This document shows, one piece after another, positions 4,932-31,085 of a stretch of 55,042 nt of DNA; the stretch's first letter is position 1; the number at the start of each line of letters is the position of its first letter. Origin of the DNA: Mariprofundus sp. (lineage in GTDB: Bacteria; Pseudomonadota; Zetaproteobacteria; Mariprofundales; Mariprofundaceae); the NCBI GenBank assembly GCA_021772835.1, contig JAJFLE010000022.1, forward strand, positions 1 to 55,042, given 5' to 3'. The translations under genes and the position numbers were made by a program. The notes beneath the pieces are model-generated. The model worked only from the letters and a program-made list of their open reading frames with translations. It searched no databases and was not told where the DNA came from.

Positions 4932-6671
4932 TTGTTACGAACGGATTTTCTTCAACCAGCATCTTTGATCTCCATAACTGCATTTATATTGTTGCTACTT
5001 ACCCCGTATATTTTCCCGGGCACATTCCCATTTGATGTTAATTTAATTCTAGCTTCAGCTGCTGCCGCATTGTTTGCAGCAAGTATCATGCTTCAAAAGA
5101 AGTGGCTGTATCTATCCAAACCTCTATTTGCCAGTTTTATATTTATACTGTGTATTCAACTATTCCTGCTTAATAACAATTATCTGCTGGCTGAAGAAAC
5201 ATGGCGACTGCAAAATATCCAATATCTCATGGCATTTATAATGCTGATCATCGGTGCATCGGTTTCTTCGACTTCCCTGATCTGCTGGATGAAGGCATAT
5301 ATCTTCATCGCTATATCCTGGGGATTAATTGGTCTTTTCGTTTGGCTAGGAGGAACCTCTGGTGAGGCTCTTCAAATTGGTACGGTCACATTAGCTCTAC
5401 CTCCTGCCCTCAAAGTGTCGGGGCCGTTCAATCAGGGGAATATATTTGCTGCAGCAATCGGATTTGCATGGCTGTTTTCCCATTGGTTTTTTTTACTGGA
5501 AAAGAAACCTGTTTATGCGGCCTGTATCATTTTCTTTACTGCCCTGCTTTTTGATACACTATCCCGAGGCGGATGGATCGCTTTCCTCATAACGATCACC
5601 CTGCTTCTGTTCGCTCTTAAACCGGGACGAGTACTATTTACGCAGAAATTGATCCCCATGTGGCTTGCGGGGCTTGCAGCTGGCGCTATTTTCCTTGAAT
5701 TCAGCAACCCTTCGGTTGAAGCTCAGGGCGTCCAGGTTGTGACTCAAACGGCGGCGGCCTCCTTTAACGCCCGCCTCGTTATCTGGGTGGCAGCTATTCA
5801 TGAGTTCATGAATGCCCCACTTACCGGTGTCGGCTGGGGCCAGTTCCAATCTGAGTTCTGGATCGTGAAACCCGCTACTATCTCATGGATCAATGACAAC
5901 CTGAATATGGAAATTCCATCCAGTTTTGTTCCATACAATGCCCATAATATATTTCTTCATGTTTTGGCTGAAGCGGGTCTGATTGCATTCGTTGCGCTTT
6001 GCTGGGGCATTTATAAATTAGCTCAAGTCACTATCAAACTCGTGTTAAATGGAGATAGCATCAGGCTTCCTTTTGCTCTTGCGGCCTCTGCTTTCATATT
6101 GCAGTCACAAGTCAACACAGTATTCCACCGCCCCATGATTTTATTAGTCGCCTCATTCTTTGCAGGCATTGCACTGGCACCATGGCTTTGGAAAAACAGC
6201 TGGAAAATAAGATCAAGGTTTTCGGTGAAAGCTACGTCAATCATCTTAACATGCCTGCTTGTTATCTGGGCATCCCAGTTAACCCAGCAATGGTTTAAAG
6301 TAGAACAGGCTATTCTGAACCTGGATTTAGGACAAAAATATTCTGTAGAAAATTTAGTCGGTTTTGCATCTCACCCCAGAATGGGACCTCTATCTCTGAC
6401 ATGGCTTGGCTTTAAGGTAGCAACGGAGCAACAACACCTGCCATTGCTCAAATGGATGGTGCCATACCTGAAGCCCTCATTAAATGAGGTGCCATCTATA
6501 CTGGCGCATCAGGTTCTGTTTTATTCGTTTTCATTTTCTCAAGAGTTTGAAGAGGCCTGCAGGATCGGAAAAATCATATCCTCGCAAAAACTCCAGGGAG
6601 AACAAAACAATCCGGCCTACGACAAGGCCTGTGAATCCAGACAAGCAGCCAAATATTTATTTGGCTACTGA
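4932..6671 (+). CDS. PglL-like O-oligosaccharyltransferase / Wzy-type ligase
   Basis: A 579-residue polytopic inner-membrane protein (about 12 segments). The large periplasmic loop contains the hallmark of the Wzy/WaaL/PglL superfamily: ARLVIWVAAIHEFMNAPLTG, GVGWGQF, and PYNAHNIFLHVLAEAGL with the conserved His-Asn. C-terminal soluble residues (about 460-579) look like the PglL C-terminal region. PglL enzymes move a lipid-linked glycan onto Ser/Thr of pilins, which fits its place immediately after a pilin gene. Translation probably starts at TTG 4932 with no clear ribosome site, suggesting coupling to the pilin stop. O-antigen ligase is the alternative. Confidence 0.82.
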   Translation: MLRTDFLQPASLISITAFILLLLTPYIFPGTFPFDVNLILASAAAALFAASIMLQKKWLYLSKPLFASFIFILCIQLFLLNNNYLLAEETWRLQNIQYLMAFIMLIIGASVSSTSLICWMKAYIFIAISWGLIGLFVWLGGTSGEALQIGTVTLALPPALKVSGPFNQGNIFAAAIGFAWLFSHWFFLLEKKPVYAACIIFFTALLFDTLSRGGWIAFLITITLLLFALKPGRVLFTQKLIPMWLAGLAAGAIFLEFSNPSVEAQGVQVVTQTAAASFNARLVIWVAAIHEFMNAPLTGVGWGQFQSEFWIVKPATISWINDNLNMEIPSSFVPYNAHNIFLHVLAEAGLIAFVALCWGIYKLAQVTIKLVLNGDSIRLPFALAASAFILQSQVNTVFHRPMILLVASFFAGIALAPWLWKNSWKIRSRFSVKATSIILTCLLVIWASQLTQQWFKVEQAILNLDLGQKYSVENLVGFASHPRMGPLSLTWLGFKVATEQQHLPLLKWMVPYLKPSLNEVPSILAHQVLFYSFSFSQEFEEACRIGKIISSQKLQGEQNNPAYDKACESRQAAKYLFGY

Positions 6672-27045: not shown

Positions 27046-27091
27046 AAAGCCCTCAGTTTGCACTCAAGGGGATCAGCAAAGGTGTTGATAA
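27046..27091 (+). repeat. Left terminal inverted repeat of the R-M element
   Basis: It begins AAAGCCCTCAGT and contains ACTCAAGGGGATCAG and AAAGGTGTTGA. The reverse complement of the right end has the same blocks in the same order; four changes in a row (TTGC versus GCAA) and two or so others separate them, about 40 of 46 bases paired. The last bases (TTGATA) also serve as the transposase -35 box. Confidence 0.85.
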
Positions 27092-27114
27092 TCATCCTTT
27101 GAAAGTGATATAAT
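27085..27114 (+). promoter_or_regulatory. Promoter of the R-M element operon
   Basis: -35 TTGATA (27085-27090) and a perfect -10 TATAAT (27109-27114) separated by 18 bases. The -35 box overlaps the inner end of the left inverted repeat. Transcription would start near 27121 and drive transposase, methyltransferase and endonuclease. Confidence 0.75.
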
Positions 27115-27139
27115 CCCTCTAACCACAACGGTTAGGGGG
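27115..27139 (+). promoter_or_regulatory. Hairpin covering the transposase ribosome-binding site
   Basis: CCCTCTAACC (27115-27124), loop ACAAC, GGTTAGGGGG (27130-27139), nine Watson-Crick pairs and one T-G. The right arm includes the AGGGGG Shine-Dalgarno of the TTG start at 27149. RNA from the element's own promoter begins inside the left arm and cannot form the whole stem, whereas RNA entering from outside can. Confidence 0.6.
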
Positions 27140-27148
27140 ATTATTTAT

Positions 27149-28924
27149 TTGGGAAAGAAATCTTCTCCACGCATTCCGCTAGAGATTGACGGCATTCAGG
27201 CCAATTTCTGCAAGAATCCTGTGTGCGACAATTACGGTGTTCCGGCCAGTACACAGGCACAGCCTCGCGGGCCGGGTGCTGCTTCACGCACCAGAGACAA
27301 TTACAGGCTTAGTCGCGGTAGCAGAAAGCCTGTCACCCAGCTTGTATGCCTATGCTGTAATGAGGTTTTTCCTATCAAAAGCAATATAGGCATATCCGAA
27401 GAATCAAGTCGCATTGGTCAATATCTTGAACCGGGAGATGAACCATCATGTCCGAACGATCTTTGTGCCAATCATGGGGTTGGAATCAGTGCTGGAAAGA
27501 TAGCGTATCAATCCTTCGGTAAAACCAAATCAGGTTCACAGCGATACCGATGCAAAAGATGCGGCCAATCGTTTTCCGTCGGAAAATCTACAACCGGGCA
27601 CAAGCAGCCGCACAAGAACAAGCTTATTTTCAAGCTGCTGATGAACAAATCTCCATTGAAGCGGATATGCGAAGTCGCTGATGTGCGGATGGAAACGGTG
27701 TATGGGAAAATTGATTTTCTTCACAGGCAATGCCTCGCGTTTGCTGCTGACAGGGAGCGTAAGCTTTTGAATGGCAAGCCTATCCACAGGATTTACGCGA
27801 GCGCAGATCGGCAGGAATACGTGGTCAACTGGTCAAGGCGGGAGGATAAGCGAAACGTAAAACTGACTGCGATTGGCAGCGCTGATAATCTGACTGGTTA
27901 TGTGTTCCAAATGAATCTGAATTATGCCCCGTTCCTTGATACGGATGAAATAGAGGCAGATGCACTGGCCCTTGGTGATCAGTCTATGCAGCCTGCTTTC
28001 AGAAGATATGCTCACGTCTGGCTGAACGTTGATTATGAGCAAAACCTGATTAAACCAGTGTCACGGAAAACCGCCGTCACTGGATTGAATGGTTCGATTG
28101 AGGATGCCTATCAGGTGGCAGTCGGCCGGGATGATGTTGAGTCTTCTGAACGCATTGCGAGCACCAGACGACTGCCATCCAGGGGTGTCCAGATACATTC
28201 AGAATACACCATGTATGGACACTTCTTTCATTTACAAAAGCTGTTTGGCGGAGCTGAAAAGGTTCGTTTCTTTCTGGATCAGGATTCCGGTATTCGAGCA
28301 GCGTGCCTATCTGCGTTTCAATCGGAAGTGGCCAATCGTTCCTGCGATGCCTTCTATGTACGAACCAACAAGGATTTGACCGTTGATGAAAAACGCCGTG
28401 CGCTGTCTGATTCCAGGCGAGAGTTCAAGGCATCACAGGCAGTGAATCCGGGCTTATCTGAAAATGATGTGAAACTACTGCTTATCAAGCAGCGGATGGC
28501 GACCATGACAGAAATCGGCAAGTGGAAGGATCGCTGGTTGCTACATCCATTCCCAAGCATGTCCGAGCCTGAGAAAGCCATCTGCTATTTGACCGATCTC
28601 GGTGATTACGATGCCGATCATCTGGCATGGCTATATAACAAGGCATCCATGCATGGCATTGATCGATTTTTTATGCAGGTTCGCCGCCGCCTATCCCTTT
28701 TGGAAAGGCCCATCTCCACAGCTAGTAGTGCCAGGCGCACTTGGTATGGGTATAGCCCATACAATCCCGCTGTGATCGTTAAGTTGCTCGATATCTTCAG
28801 GGTCTTTTACAACTACTGCTTGGTCGGGGAGGATGGGCAGACACCGGCAATGCGTATCGGATTGGCGAAAGGAAAAACCGATATGGAAAAAATAATTTAT
28901 TTCCAGACAATAAAGGATTACTGA
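27149..28924 (+). CDS. Tandem zinc-ribbon DDE-like transposase of the R-M element
   Basis: A 591-residue protein. Two zinc ribbons are arranged in tandem: C21/C26 with C67/C70, and C101/C106 with C135/C138 (YRCKRCGQSF, like IS1 InsA). A helix-turn-helix region follows (MNKSPLKRICEVADVRMETVYGK in two parts, residues 165-187), then an RNase H-like core with ASADRQ (D220), FFLDQDSG (D377 or D379) and HGIDRFFMQVRRR (D505, where most families have Glu). The C-terminus (WYGYSPYNP, IFRVFYNYC, TPAMRIGLAKG) is typical of DDE transposases. TTG start with AGGGGGA upstream. The family is not one I can name; transposition activity is inference. Confidence 0.75.
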   Translation: MGKKSSPRIPLEIDGIQANFCKNPVCDNYGVPASTQAQPRGPGAASRTRDNYRLSRGSRKPVTQLVCLCCNEVFPIKSNIGISEESSRIGQYLEPGDEPSCPNDLCANHGVGISAGKIAYQSFGKTKSGSQRYRCKRCGQSFSVGKSTTGHKQPHKNKLIFKLLMNKSPLKRICEVADVRMETVYGKIDFLHRQCLAFAADRERKLLNGKPIHRIYASADRQEYVVNWSRREDKRNVKLTAIGSADNLTGYVFQMNLNYAPFLDTDEIEADALALGDQSMQPAFRRYAHVWLNVDYEQNLIKPVSRKTAVTGLNGSIEDAYQVAVGRDDVESSERIASTRRLPSRGVQIHSEYTMYGHFFHLQKLFGGAEKVRFFLDQDSGIRAACLSAFQSEVANRSCDAFYVRTNKDLTVDEKRRALSDSRREFKASQAVNPGLSENDVKLLLIKQRMATMTEIGKWKDRWLLHPFPSMSEPEKAICYLTDLGDYDADHLAWLYNKASMHGIDRFFMQVRRRLSLLERPISTASSARRTWYGYSPYNPAVIVKLLDIFRVFYNYCLVGEDGQTPAMRIGLAKGKTDMEKIIYFQTIKDY

Positions 28925-28925
28925 T

Positions 28926-30017
28926 ATGGATAAGAATGTGATGCAAATATCGGAAAAGCGCCCTAGAGCCATTACCGTAGATGGCAAGGATGGTGCCACG
29001 GCAAGCCTTGAGTTTAACGATGCGATGAATTGCTACGAACGATGGCCTTCACCCACAGCAATCATCTCCGATGGCCCTTATGGGTTAGGAAAATATCCTG
29101 GCGAACCAAAAACGCCTGAAAATTTAGGAAAATGGTATGAGCCTCACATTAAACTATGGAGTGAATGTTCTTTGCCATCTACAACTCTTTGGTTCTGGTG
29201 TACTGAACAGGGATGGGCTGATGTGCATTCCGTCCTGAAGTCGCATGGATGGGTGTATCGTGCGGCCCACATTTGGGATAAGGGCATAGGTCATGTAGCA
29301 GGGAACTGTAATGGAGACACAATTCGGAGCTTCCCTGTTGTAACTGAGGTCTGTGTTCAATATGTCCGCGATGTTCGGATTACCGCAGAAGATGGCCGCG
29401 AGCTATCAATCAAGGAGTGGCTGCGCCATGAATGGAGGAGAAGCGGGCTTCCGCTTTGCAAAACAAACGAAGCATGTGGCGTGAAAAATGCGGCAACCCG
29501 GAAATACTTTACTCAATGCCACCTGTGGTACTTCCCTCCATTAAATAAAATGATGCAGCTTGCAGAGTACGCAGAAAAATTTGGTAATAAAACAAGCCGC
29601 CCATATTTCTCACTTGATGGAGTATCACCACTCACGAAGGAAAAATGGTCGGGAATGCGAGCTAAGTGGAACCACACACATGGCATCACCAATGTCTGGC
29701 AAGAGCCTGCAGTTCGTGGAGTCGAGAGGATTAAACAAAATGGCAAATTAAAAAGCTTACATGCAAATCAAAAGCCACTGAAATTGATAACCCAAACAAT
29801 ACTGGCCAGCACGGATTCTGGAGATGTTGTATGGGAGCCTTTTGGCGGGATGTGCTCTGGACTCATATCAGCTTTACACCATAATAGGCGTGGATACGGT
29901 GCGGAGTTACTACCCGAATACTACAGGGTAGCTTCTGAGCGGCTGTTGTCGGAATCACTGGGGAGGGATTCAATTGCCTACAACAAAACCAAAAGAACCA
30001 ACACAGAAAGAACTTAA
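28926..30017 (+). CDS. DNA methyltransferase, N4/N6 amino type
   Basis: A 363-residue modification enzyme. Motif IV appears first as SDGPYG (residues 48-53; a DGPY variant of D/S-PP-Y), motif X/linker HANQKPLKLI and the SAM motif I as WEPFGGMCSG near residue 315, then YGAELLPEYYRVASERL. The IV-before-I order is the beta class, as in many type II enzymes with N6-adenine or N4-cytosine targets. A middle region (about 140-270) is probably target recognition. It starts one base after the transposase stop with AAGGA upstream and overlaps the endonuclease gene by 44 bases. Confidence 0.88.
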   Translation: MDKNVMQISEKRPRAITVDGKDGATASLEFNDAMNCYERWPSPTAIISDGPYGLGKYPGEPKTPENLGKWYEPHIKLWSECSLPSTTLWFWCTEQGWADVHSVLKSHGWVYRAAHIWDKGIGHVAGNCNGDTIRSFPVVTEVCVQYVRDVRITAEDGRELSIKEWLRHEWRRSGLPLCKTNEACGVKNAATRKYFTQCHLWYFPPLNKMMQLAEYAEKFGNKTSRPYFSLDGVSPLTKEKWSGMRAKWNHTHGITNVWQEPAVRGVERIKQNGKLKSLHANQKPLKLITQTILASTDSGDVVWEPFGGMCSGLISALHHNRRGYGAELLPEYYRVASERLLSESLGRDSIAYNKTKRTNTERT

Positions 30018-30903
30018 CAGAAACCATAAGCACCGGGGTTTATTTGAAGGCGTTAAAGAGGCGCTTCATAGACTGCCGGAGTCTTTCGAGTCACCTCTTG
30101 AAATTAAGGGTGTCTTGTCCACAGATTTGTTTTCTTTTAACACATCTCTTAGCGCTACCATTGAAGAACAAGTTGTTGCCAGCCTTAATGACCTAAGACA
30201 TGTATGGGATGAAGAGAGCAAGTATGATTTGTACTCATTTGAACGCCAACCTCAAACTTTTCCCGATGTTGTACTGAGAACTAATGCCCCAAAAAAAGAG
30301 CCAAAAATCATCATGGGTATTGAATTGAAGGGGTGGTACGTTTTATCAAAAGAGAAAGAACCAAGCTCACGATATAAGGTCACGCCCTCTGTGTGCGCTG
30401 ACACGGATTTATTAGTCATTGTTCCGTGGGTTTTAGATGAAGTAACCTCCGGATCACCTATTGTTTTTGATCCGTTTATTGTTCGGGCTAGATATGCAGC
30501 AGAATATAGAAACTGGTGGTGGGAACATAAGCGCGAATCAACATCAAATAAGAACATCATCCTGTCATCCTGCACCAATAGCTACCCATCAAAGAAAGAT
30601 CAGATACTAGATAAGCCAGCCTCAGACAGTGGAAATAATTTTGGCAGATTTGCTCGCACAGGCATTATGGGACAATATTTTGAGTCACTATTCAACACGC
30701 TCTTGTCAGGAATACCCTTGGGATCATGGCAAGCTTTCTTTAGTCTTTTTAGCCAAGATGTGGACCTATGTTCGATAGAGGAAGCTATAAATAAAATGAA
30801 AGTAGAAACTGTTAAAAGCAGTCCTCCGGATACTCTACTAAGCCAAACAGCAAAAATTCTTTCCGACTTGGCCGATAAAATATCGTCCAATAAAAGCGCA
30901 TAG
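29974..30903 (+). CDS. Type II restriction endonuclease, PD-(D/E)xK type
   Basis: A 309-residue protein with the nuclease signature FPDVVLR (D98) and GIELKGWYVLSKE (E117, K119), then 'SVCADTDLLVIVPWVL' and ARYAAEYRNWWW. The catalytic triad order and spacing fit a PD-(D/E)xK restriction enzyme, which the overlapping methyltransferase gene supports. Translation probably starts at TTG 29974 with GGGAGGG six bases upstream. Recognition sequence unknown. Followed by a terminator, then the right inverted repeat. Confidence 0.82.
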   Translation: MPTTKPKEPTQKELNRNHKHRGLFEGVKEALHRLPESFESPLEIKGVLSTDLFSFNTSLSATIEEQVVASLNDLRHVWDEESKYDLYSFERQPQTFPDVVLRTNAPKKEPKIIMGIELKGWYVLSKEKEPSSRYKVTPSVCADTDLLVIVPWVLDEVTSGSPIVFDPFIVRARYAAEYRNWWWEHKRESTSNKNIILSSCTNSYPSKKDQILDKPASDSGNNFGRFARTGIMGQYFESLFNTLLSGIPLGSWQAFFSLFSQDVDLCSIEEAINKMKVETVKSSPPDTLLSQTAKILSDLADKISSNKSA

Positions 30904-30998
30904 CACACAAGACTTTGCAAAAAGTATAAATTCGATTATCACCAAACAAGCAGAATATAGCTTACCCCATGCAGGAAAATAGTTACCGTAAAAACGAT

Positions 30999-31028
30999 AA
31001 AGGCAGCGAATGATTTCGCTGCCTTTTA
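30999..31028 (+). terminator. Terminator of the R-M operon
   Basis: AAAGGCAGCGAA (30999-31010), loop TGAT, TTCGCTGCCTTT (31015-31026) with a further T; a perfect 12-base stem. It lies 95 bases after the endonuclease stop and 12 bases before the right inverted repeat, so it shields serC from the element's transcripts. Confidence 0.88.
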
Positions 31029-31039
31029 AAGTCATGCTG

Positions 31040-31085
31040 TTTTCAACACCTTTACTGATCCCCTTGAGTTTGCACTGAGGGCTTT
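31040..31085 (-). repeat. Right terminal inverted repeat of the R-M element
   Basis: Read on the minus strand from 31085 inward it gives AAAGCCCTCAGT, then ACTCAAGGGGATCAG and AAAGGTGTTGA, the same blocks as the left repeat. The outer end lies 21 bases from the serC stop codon. Confidence 0.85.

What the first reader, a model, noticed from the sequence alone, without database searches (positions are those of the whole stretch)
27046..31085. A 4 kb transposon that seems to carry a complete type II restriction-modification system
Inverted repeats of about 46 bp (about 40 paired) lie exactly around three genes: a zinc-ribbon DDE-like protein, a beta-class methyltransferase and a PD-(D/E)xK nuclease. 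The methyltransferase starts one base after the transposase stop and the nuclease overlaps it by 44 bases, so all three read as one operon from a promoter overlapping the left repeat. R-M systems are usually mobilised by other elements; here the R-M genes appear to be in the transposon's own operon. The element sits 21 bases past serC. GAA on both sides may be a 3-base target duplication.
Basis: partly seen in the sequence, partly recalled or inferred. Interest (0 to 1): 0.85.

Follow-up and report, generated by a model that had tools for sequence, protein, structure and literature searches.

The report
Terminator-splitting transposon carrying restriction-modification genes
A bacterial jumping gene has landed inside the transcription stop signal of a neighbouring gene, carrying a two-gene DNA-cutting defence set; relatives of the same jumping gene carry other, unrelated defence sets, so it looks like a vehicle that moves such systems between genomes.

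Summary
Confirmed and extended, with one correction. A zinc-ribbon DDE-like transposase, a beta-class methyltransferase and a PD-(D/E)xK nuclease lie between inverted repeats. The 46-bp repeat is composite: the transposon ends are ~25 bp (27065-27089, 31042-31066); the outer 19 bp are halves of the target, the serC terminator AAAGCCCTC-AGTTTGCACT-GAGGGCTTT, split with a 10-bp duplication, not GAA. In 18 of 18 relatives with a readable serC end an uninterrupted hairpin follows serC, by eye 12 of one type.
The window's transposase passes no curated cut-off. Of 21 elements with both ends found, 18 have exact duplications of 9 bp or more and 14 sit in hairpins that at most 4 of 300 random sites match. 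14 of 21 carry cargo; four carry R-M systems of different make-up (this one, NotI-like, PstI-like, BcgI-like), three of them in the two genomes, of 78 searched in the class, with full-length copies. Transposition and restriction are inferred. Known parts: R-M units with repeats and duplications; terminator-seeking IS1272. Apparently new: this family, its target rule, its exchangeable R-M cargo.

The parts
27046..27054 (.). left half-stem of the split serC terminator (target DNA, not transposon)
   Evidence: joined flanks give AAAGCCCTCAGTTTGCACTGAGGGCTTT, 12-bp stem
27055..27064 (.). target duplication, copy 1 (AGTTTGCACT, covers the loop of the terminator)
27065..31066 (+). transposon, 4002 bp
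27065..27089 (+). left terminal inverted repeat CAAGGGGATCAGCAAAGGTGTTGAT
   Evidence: compare CAAGCCGATCAATAAAGGTGTTGAT in L025
27085..27114 (+). promoter-like site TTGATA-18-TATAAT, first hexamer at the inner edge of the left repeat
   Evidence: 11 of 12 matches; consensus match only; 4 such sites found in the region, 6.6 expected from shuffles
27110..27144 (+). hairpin overlapping the -10 hexamer and covering AGGGGG, the likely ribosome site (27134-27139), before the transposase start
   Evidence: a hairpin before the transposase is seen by eye in the RNAfold output of all 21 elements; ungapped stem scan beats all 60 shuffles in 17 of 21
27149..28924 (+). transposase, 591 aa, zinc ribbons then DDE-like core (D220, D377, E519 proposed)
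28926..30017 (+). beta-class DNA methyltransferase, 363 aa (PF01555); class assigned by motif order, recalled rule
29974..30903 (+). restriction endonuclease, 309 aa, PD-(D/E)xK (P97 D98 ... E117-L-K119)
30999..31026 (.). hairpin near the right end, terminator-like on the - strand
   Evidence: nearly the same AAAGGCAGCGAA stem in sister element L024 although cargo differs
31042..31066 (-). right terminal inverted repeat (2 of 25 positions differ from the left)
31067..31076 (.). target duplication, copy 2
31077..31085 (.). right half-stem of the split serC terminator

Best explanation
A 4002-bp autonomous DDE-type transposon of a family without a curated model inserted into the loop of the serC intrinsic terminator and duplicated 10 bp. 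[Shown: ends, duplication, split terminator, uninterrupted hairpins in relatives.] Its transposase recognises ~25-bp ends and prefers DNA that can form a hairpin, mostly gene-end terminators. [Preference shown statistically; mechanism inferred.] The promoter has its -35 at the inner edge of the left end and drives transposase, methyltransferase and nuclease as one unit. [Inferred.] A hairpin over the -10 and ribosome site forms in full only in transcripts that read in from outside, so it keeps transposase, and perhaps the R-M genes, off when a neighbour's transcription runs through; a second hairpin near the right end can stand in for the terminator that was destroyed. [Hairpins shown, roles inferred.] The R-M pair is interchangeable cargo: it defends the host and may make loss of the element costly, while the element gives the R-M genes mobility. 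[Difference of cargo between sister elements shown; benefit inferred.]
For: Ends and 10-bp duplication. 18 of 21 family elements with exact duplications of 9 bp or more; 14 of 21 in strong hairpins centred on the duplication. Uninterrupted hairpin after serC in 18 of 18 relatives with a readable end (by eye 12 of one recognisable type), and after a thioredoxin-like gene in 19 of 19 loci examined where L024 splits it. The window's, L024's and L025's transposases form one starred group (100/99) but carry three R-M systems of different families; a fourth, BcgI-like, sits on another branch next to a cargo-free element. Foldseek's five lowest E-values include ISCth4 (twice), Tn5 and Mos1 transposases. 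Hairpin before the transposase in all 21 by eye, 17 of 21 above all shuffles.
Against: Only one copy in its own genome and no element caught moving. Fold match weak: no hit at E 0.001 or below, best 0.011, TM of the top hit 0.26/0.40, model pLDDT 65; one of the top three rows is not a transposase. 5 of 21 sites show no hairpin above chance (L019, L020, L069, L073, L084) and two are borderline (L014, L025). The promoter and terminator scans found no more sites in the region than shuffles. Activity of the R-M enzymes unknown; REase hit in PADLOC weak (2.5e-5). No C protein or other regulator among the ORFs. 7 of 21 elements have no cargo, so R-M is not needed by the family.
Confidence: 0.82

Rival explanations
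1. Terminators are where insertions survive, not where they are aimed: the transposon inserts anywhere and selection leaves those between genes.
For: Gene ends are safe; 5 of 21 sites have no hairpin above chance. My control used random sites of the same loci, not intergenic sites only.
Against: Safe intergenic DNA alone would not place the duplication on the hairpin centre; 14 of 21 centred hairpins with at most 4 of 300 random sites as good.
Confidence: 0.15
2. The R-M pair moves by itself (R-M units with imperfect repeats and target duplication, as reviewed in PMC3874152) and the transposase is a bystander.
For: R-M units with repeats are reported; this R-M pair exists on plasmids without the transposase.
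Against: Ends of the same kind bound transposase-only elements of ~2 kb (L009, L010, L017, L070) and elements with other cargo.
Confidence: 0.03
3. A dead, fixed insertion: the ends are relics and the R-M genes are now ordinary chromosomal genes.
For: One copy; no match for this REase in the other 77 genomes searched of the class.
Against: All three frames intact, ends differ at only 2 of 25 positions, duplication exact, proposed triad kept.
Confidence: 0.25

Closest known systems
IS1 / IS1595 families (NCBIfam NF033558, NF050000)
   Same: Zn-ribbon at residues 123-143; duplications of about 8-10 bp are recalled for IS1
   Different: Scores 44.6 vs cut-off 100 and 27.1 vs 28; match stops at residue 193; the IS1 profile is 199 long, this protein 591
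IS1272 / TnSha1 (IS1182 family), PMC4923244, passages read
   Same: Targets hairpins, often terminators; can carry a host-type gene
   Different: Per that paper: blunt deletion of part of the stem, no target duplication. Here the stem is kept and 9 bp or more duplicated; no IS1182 model among the matches
Mobile R-M units with imperfect repeats and target duplication (Furuta 2010, known to me here only through passages of PMC3874152)
   Same: R-M between inverted repeats with target duplication
   Different: Here a transposase gene lies between the repeats and the R-M type differs between sister elements
Plasmid-borne MTase-REase pair (L108-L111)
   Same: Same two genes, adjacent, 48-56% (MTase) and 38-44% (REase) identity
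   Different: No transposase of this family in the stretches read
ISCth4 (IS256), Tn5
   Same: Among the best fold matches; IS256-type 4-Cys zinc domain model matched weakly
   Different: Below curated cut-off (21.9 vs 27); fold match not significant

Membership tests
IS1 | NF033558 score at or above 100 bits | tested here: not met
   window protein 44.6 bits, residues 123-193 only; all 16 members of A1 match at E 0.01 or better, their scores not shown
IS1595 | NF050000 zinc domain at or above 28 bits | tested here: not met
   27.1 bits
IS256 | NF048018 4-Cys domain at or above 27 bits | tested here: not met
   21.9 bits; fold resemblance to ISCth4 weak
IS1182 / IS1272 | insertion deletes part of the hairpin, no target duplication (PMC4923244) | tested here: not met
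   18 of 21 elements have exact duplications of 9 bp or more
DDE transposon | terminal inverted repeats plus target duplication | tested here: met
DDE transposon | RNase-H-like core with D, D, E | tested here: inconclusive
   D220 16/16, D377 15/16, E519 14/16; best fold match E 0.011
Type II R-M | DNA methyltransferase domain | tested here: met
   PF01555 64.4 bits vs 26.7
Type II R-M | adjacent nuclease with conserved PD-(D/E)xK | tested here: met
   P97 D98 E117 K119 invariant in 5 of 5; motif name recalled
Type II R-M | cleavage and protection of one motif | not testable with these tools
   needs expression or methylation calling

The most novel reading that the evidence does not exclude
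A distinct, widespread transposon family that seeks the hairpin of transcription terminators, insulates itself from read-through with hairpins at its ends, and serves as a swap-in chassis for self-preserving modules (several unrelated R-M types, a Mokosh-like set, HipA), with R-M cargo killing cells that lose the element so that excision is punished.
Probability: 0.35. Interest if true: 0.82.

Novelty: new variant of a known kind. Interest (0 to 1): 0.62.

Why it matters
How R-M genes spread so widely without obvious vehicles is an old question (recalled). Here is a small vehicle with clear ends, a largely predictable landing site (terminator loops) and exchangeable R-M cargo, which makes it testable: one can look for its empty sites in related genomes and for R-M genes between the halves of a split terminator. 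It also warns that palindromic targets lengthen apparent terminal repeats and hide the true duplication.

Tried and rejected
GAA as target duplication: rejected, the exact 10-bp duplication lies further in.

Re-pairing of the transposon tip with the target half-stem to rebuild a terminator: idea suggested by the window (CCCT..AGGG). Tested by swapping ends among elements: mean -7.7 observed vs -7.2 swapped kcal/mol, Wilcoxon p 0.36 for all 42 junctions, 0.14 for the 28 junctions of palindromic sites. Not supported.

Family specialised in defence: not supported. Of 14 cargo-bearing elements 4 carry R-M, 1 a Mokosh-like gene plus HNH and a nucleotidyltransferase/HepT pair (L086), 1 HipA (L013), 1 a dihydrofolate reductase-like gene (L084), the rest none recognised as defence; L018, L022 and L084 cargo was not scanned against families, L069's against Pfam only.

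Vibrio-like chromosomal relatives (seven loci read: L021, L078-L083; eight genomes of one unnamed genus; kinship judged from L021 and L078) gave no pair of ends resembling the family's; in the one row aligned (L021) D377 is P and E519 is missing: left out of the element set. Other loci with no convincing pair of ends and left out: L011 (contig stops), L023 (one end), L015, L026-L028, L068, L072, L074, L075, L077, L085; L003-L006 were fragments. For L016 the right end was found in the longer stretch L086.
Full report
Observation. The inverted pair 27046-27091 / 31040-31085 is real (46 nt, 87%). Between the arms are a 591-aa protein, a 363-aa methyltransferase starting one base after its stop, and a 309-aa protein overlapping that by 44 bases. 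The genome appears to belong to Mariprofundus: the nearest relative, 68% identical in the transposase, is on a contig of M. micogutta ET2 that has the same length as contig C1 of genome G050, listed as same genus.

What the genes are. The first protein has no Pfam match at E 0.01 and only sub-cut-off NCBIfam matches to zinc domains and N-termini of IS1, IS1595, IS256 and IS1249 transposases. An AlphaFold model from 8 sequences (mean pLDDT 65) finds no PDB fold at E 0.001; the five lowest E-values (0.011-0.020) are ISCth4 twice, HerA-NurA, Tn5 and Mos1. Acidic residues kept in the 16-row alignment are D220 (16/16), D377 (15/16) and E519 (14/16), with strands at 212-226 and 369-377; I propose these as the triad (inference). 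A few other acidic residues are about as conserved, such as E85. The methyltransferase matches PF01555 above cut-off. The third matches a PADLOC type II restriction model at 2.5e-5 and keeps PD..ELK in 5 of 5 aligned relatives. Ten plasmid records hold a relative of the nuclease; in the 4 I opened a DNA methyltransferase lies directly upstream, 48-56% identical to the window's, and a profile search finds no transposase of this family in those four stretches (positive control L086 found). So the pair is a two-gene R-M unit that also exists without the transposon. No solved-structure sequence matches the nuclease at E 1.

Correcting the ends. Comparing ends of relatives shows a family pattern close to CAAGCCG.TC..TTAA..TGTTGAA, with variation. 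In the window this is CAAGGGGATCAGCAAAGGTGTTGAT (27065) and its partner (to 31066), differing at 2 of 25 positions. The outer 19 bp of each 46-bp arm read AAAGCCCTCAGTTTGCACT and AGTTTGCACTGAGGGCTTT. Joined over one copy of AGTTTGCACT they give AAAGCCCTCAGTTTGCACTGAGGGCTTT, which on the serC strand is followed by TTCTTTTA: an intrinsic terminator that begins 21 nt past the stop codon. Of 21 serC loci in the genus search (20 of 23 genomes), 19 had a readable end: the window's own and 18 others. All 18 others have a hairpin within 120 nt (best hairpin, no shuffle control here); by eye, in 12 it is recognisably the same terminator (such as AAAGCCCTCTGCGAAAGCAGGGGGCTTT), in 4 another strong one, in 2 (L103, L104) a weaker one. 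A second locus repeats this: L024 splits the terminator behind a thioredoxin-like gene, which is whole in 19 of 19 other loci examined (L114-L132), the window's own genome included; L133-L142, partial or weaker matches, were not examined.

The family. Sources: 8 loci from GTDB contigs, 8 of 130 plasmid places (the 40 rows listed hold many Enterococcus and Staphylococcus copies at the same identity), 2 viral contigs, and genome searches with 15 of 398 hits in the phylum (the window's genome and G050 among them, 8 of the 15 one unnamed genus of Vibrio-like degenerate relatives), 7 of 7 genomes of earlier loci, 2 of 345 and 2 of 345 (apparently nearly the same sample), 3 of 293 (each of these three counts includes the centre genome, known to have a copy), 6 of 78 in the class (2 genomes with full-length copies, one of them the window's, 4 with fragments). 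E. coli genomes: no DNA match. I found both ends for 21 distinct elements. 18 have an exact flanking duplication of 9-12 bp when the boundary may shift by a few bases (palindromic targets make it ambiguous); L014, L018 and L086 have 5, 0 and 6. Scoring the best hairpin centred within 3 nt of the duplication against 300 random sites of the same locus, 14 of 21 have at most 4 of 300 as good, 2 are borderline (11 and 19 of 300), 5 are at chance. So the family tends to insert in hairpin loops, many of them terminator-like; L012 sits directly behind a tRNA-Arg gene.

Cargo. 7 of 21 are about 2 kb with the transposase alone. 14 carry more: R-M in four, namely the window, L024 (D12 methylase and a NotI-family nuclease, convergent), L025 (Eco57I-type methylase and BsuBI/PstI-type nuclease), and L066 (IIG-type fused enzyme plus specificity subunit, BcgI-like by layout as I recall it). 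L086 (10.1 kb) has a protein matching PADLOC MkoC at 2e-157, an HNH protein and a nucleotidyltransferase/HepT pair; L013 has HipA; L071 a J-domain protein; L067 a hydrolase match below cut-off; L084 a gene in the place where its near-twin L023 is annotated dfrG; L012, L069, L073 no confident family match; L018, L022 not scanned. A fifth R-M pair stands beside the transposase in L072 (weak REase match), but I found no ends there. On the transposase tree (25 rows) the window, L024 and L025 form one starred group with three different R-M types; L066 is sister to cargo-free L017; the R-M label, L072 included, needs 3 changes, shuffled mean 4.7, 21 of 500 shuffles as low, so R-M carriage is somewhat clustered. 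Hence cargo differs among close relatives while the chassis persists. How cargo is acquired is not shown.

Expression and insulation. A promoter-like site (11 of 12) has its first hexamer at the inner edge of the left end, its second at 27109-27114; the region as a whole has no more such sites than shuffles. A hairpin at 27110-27144 overlaps the second hexamer and includes AGGGGG (27134-27139), nine bases before the TTG start. By eye, RNAfold shows a hairpin between left end and transposase in all 21 elements; an ungapped stem scan beats all 60 shuffles in 17 of 21, fails in L012, L019, L086 (bulged or long-looped stems) and is weak in L025. Sequences differ, so structure seems to be what is kept; no covariation test was run. 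By analogy with IS10 and IS50 (recalled; one search found no paper) I infer that transcripts from outside carry the whole hairpin and are silenced, while own transcripts start inside it. The right end has a second hairpin in the window, nearly shared with L024 despite different cargo; 14 of 21 right ends beat all 60 shuffles, 7 do not.

What is known. PMC3874152 (passages read) states that R-M systems occur on transposons and that some R-M units with imperfect repeats insert with short duplications. PMC4923244 (passages read) shows that IS1272 and TnSha1 target hairpins, with partial deletion and no duplication, and ties dfrG to other insertion sequences.

Verdict. A real, apparently intact R-M transposon of a family without a curated model, with an unusual target rule. 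New variant of a known kind.

Noticed in passing
L084:165-3440; L023:4923-7607: The dfrG trimethoprim-resistance gene annotated in L023 seems to sit in a transposon of this same family (L084: both ends TAAGTAGTTCAGTTTTGGAGTACAAA, 9-bp duplication CTATTCGAT; L023 keeps one end), besides the IS257/IS256 links named in PMC4923244.
   Followed up: partly
L021, L078-L083: A Vibrio-like chromosomal relative of the transposase without findable ends; in the aligned copy D377 is P and E519 is absent: a possible domesticated or dead copy kept across one genus.
   Followed up: partly
L086:820-10941: A 10.1-kb family member on a Polaromonas plasmid with a Mokosh-like helicase, HNH protein and nucleotidyltransferase/HepT pair, in the hairpin AAAGCCGCCCTCACGAGGGGCGGCTTT.
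   Followed up: partly
L072:4514-8842: Transposase relative beside a methyltransferase and a weak REase_II match, a possible fifth R-M element whose ends I could not find.
   Followed up: partly
L012:5767-9920: Family member inserted in a hairpin directly behind a tRNA-Arg gene (5767-5843); its 396-aa cargo protein matches no Pfam or PADLOC family.
   Followed up: partly
L011:5893-9606: Left end and transposase followed by a helicase-like protein with a DdmD match (1.9e-9); contig stops before a right end.
   Followed up: no
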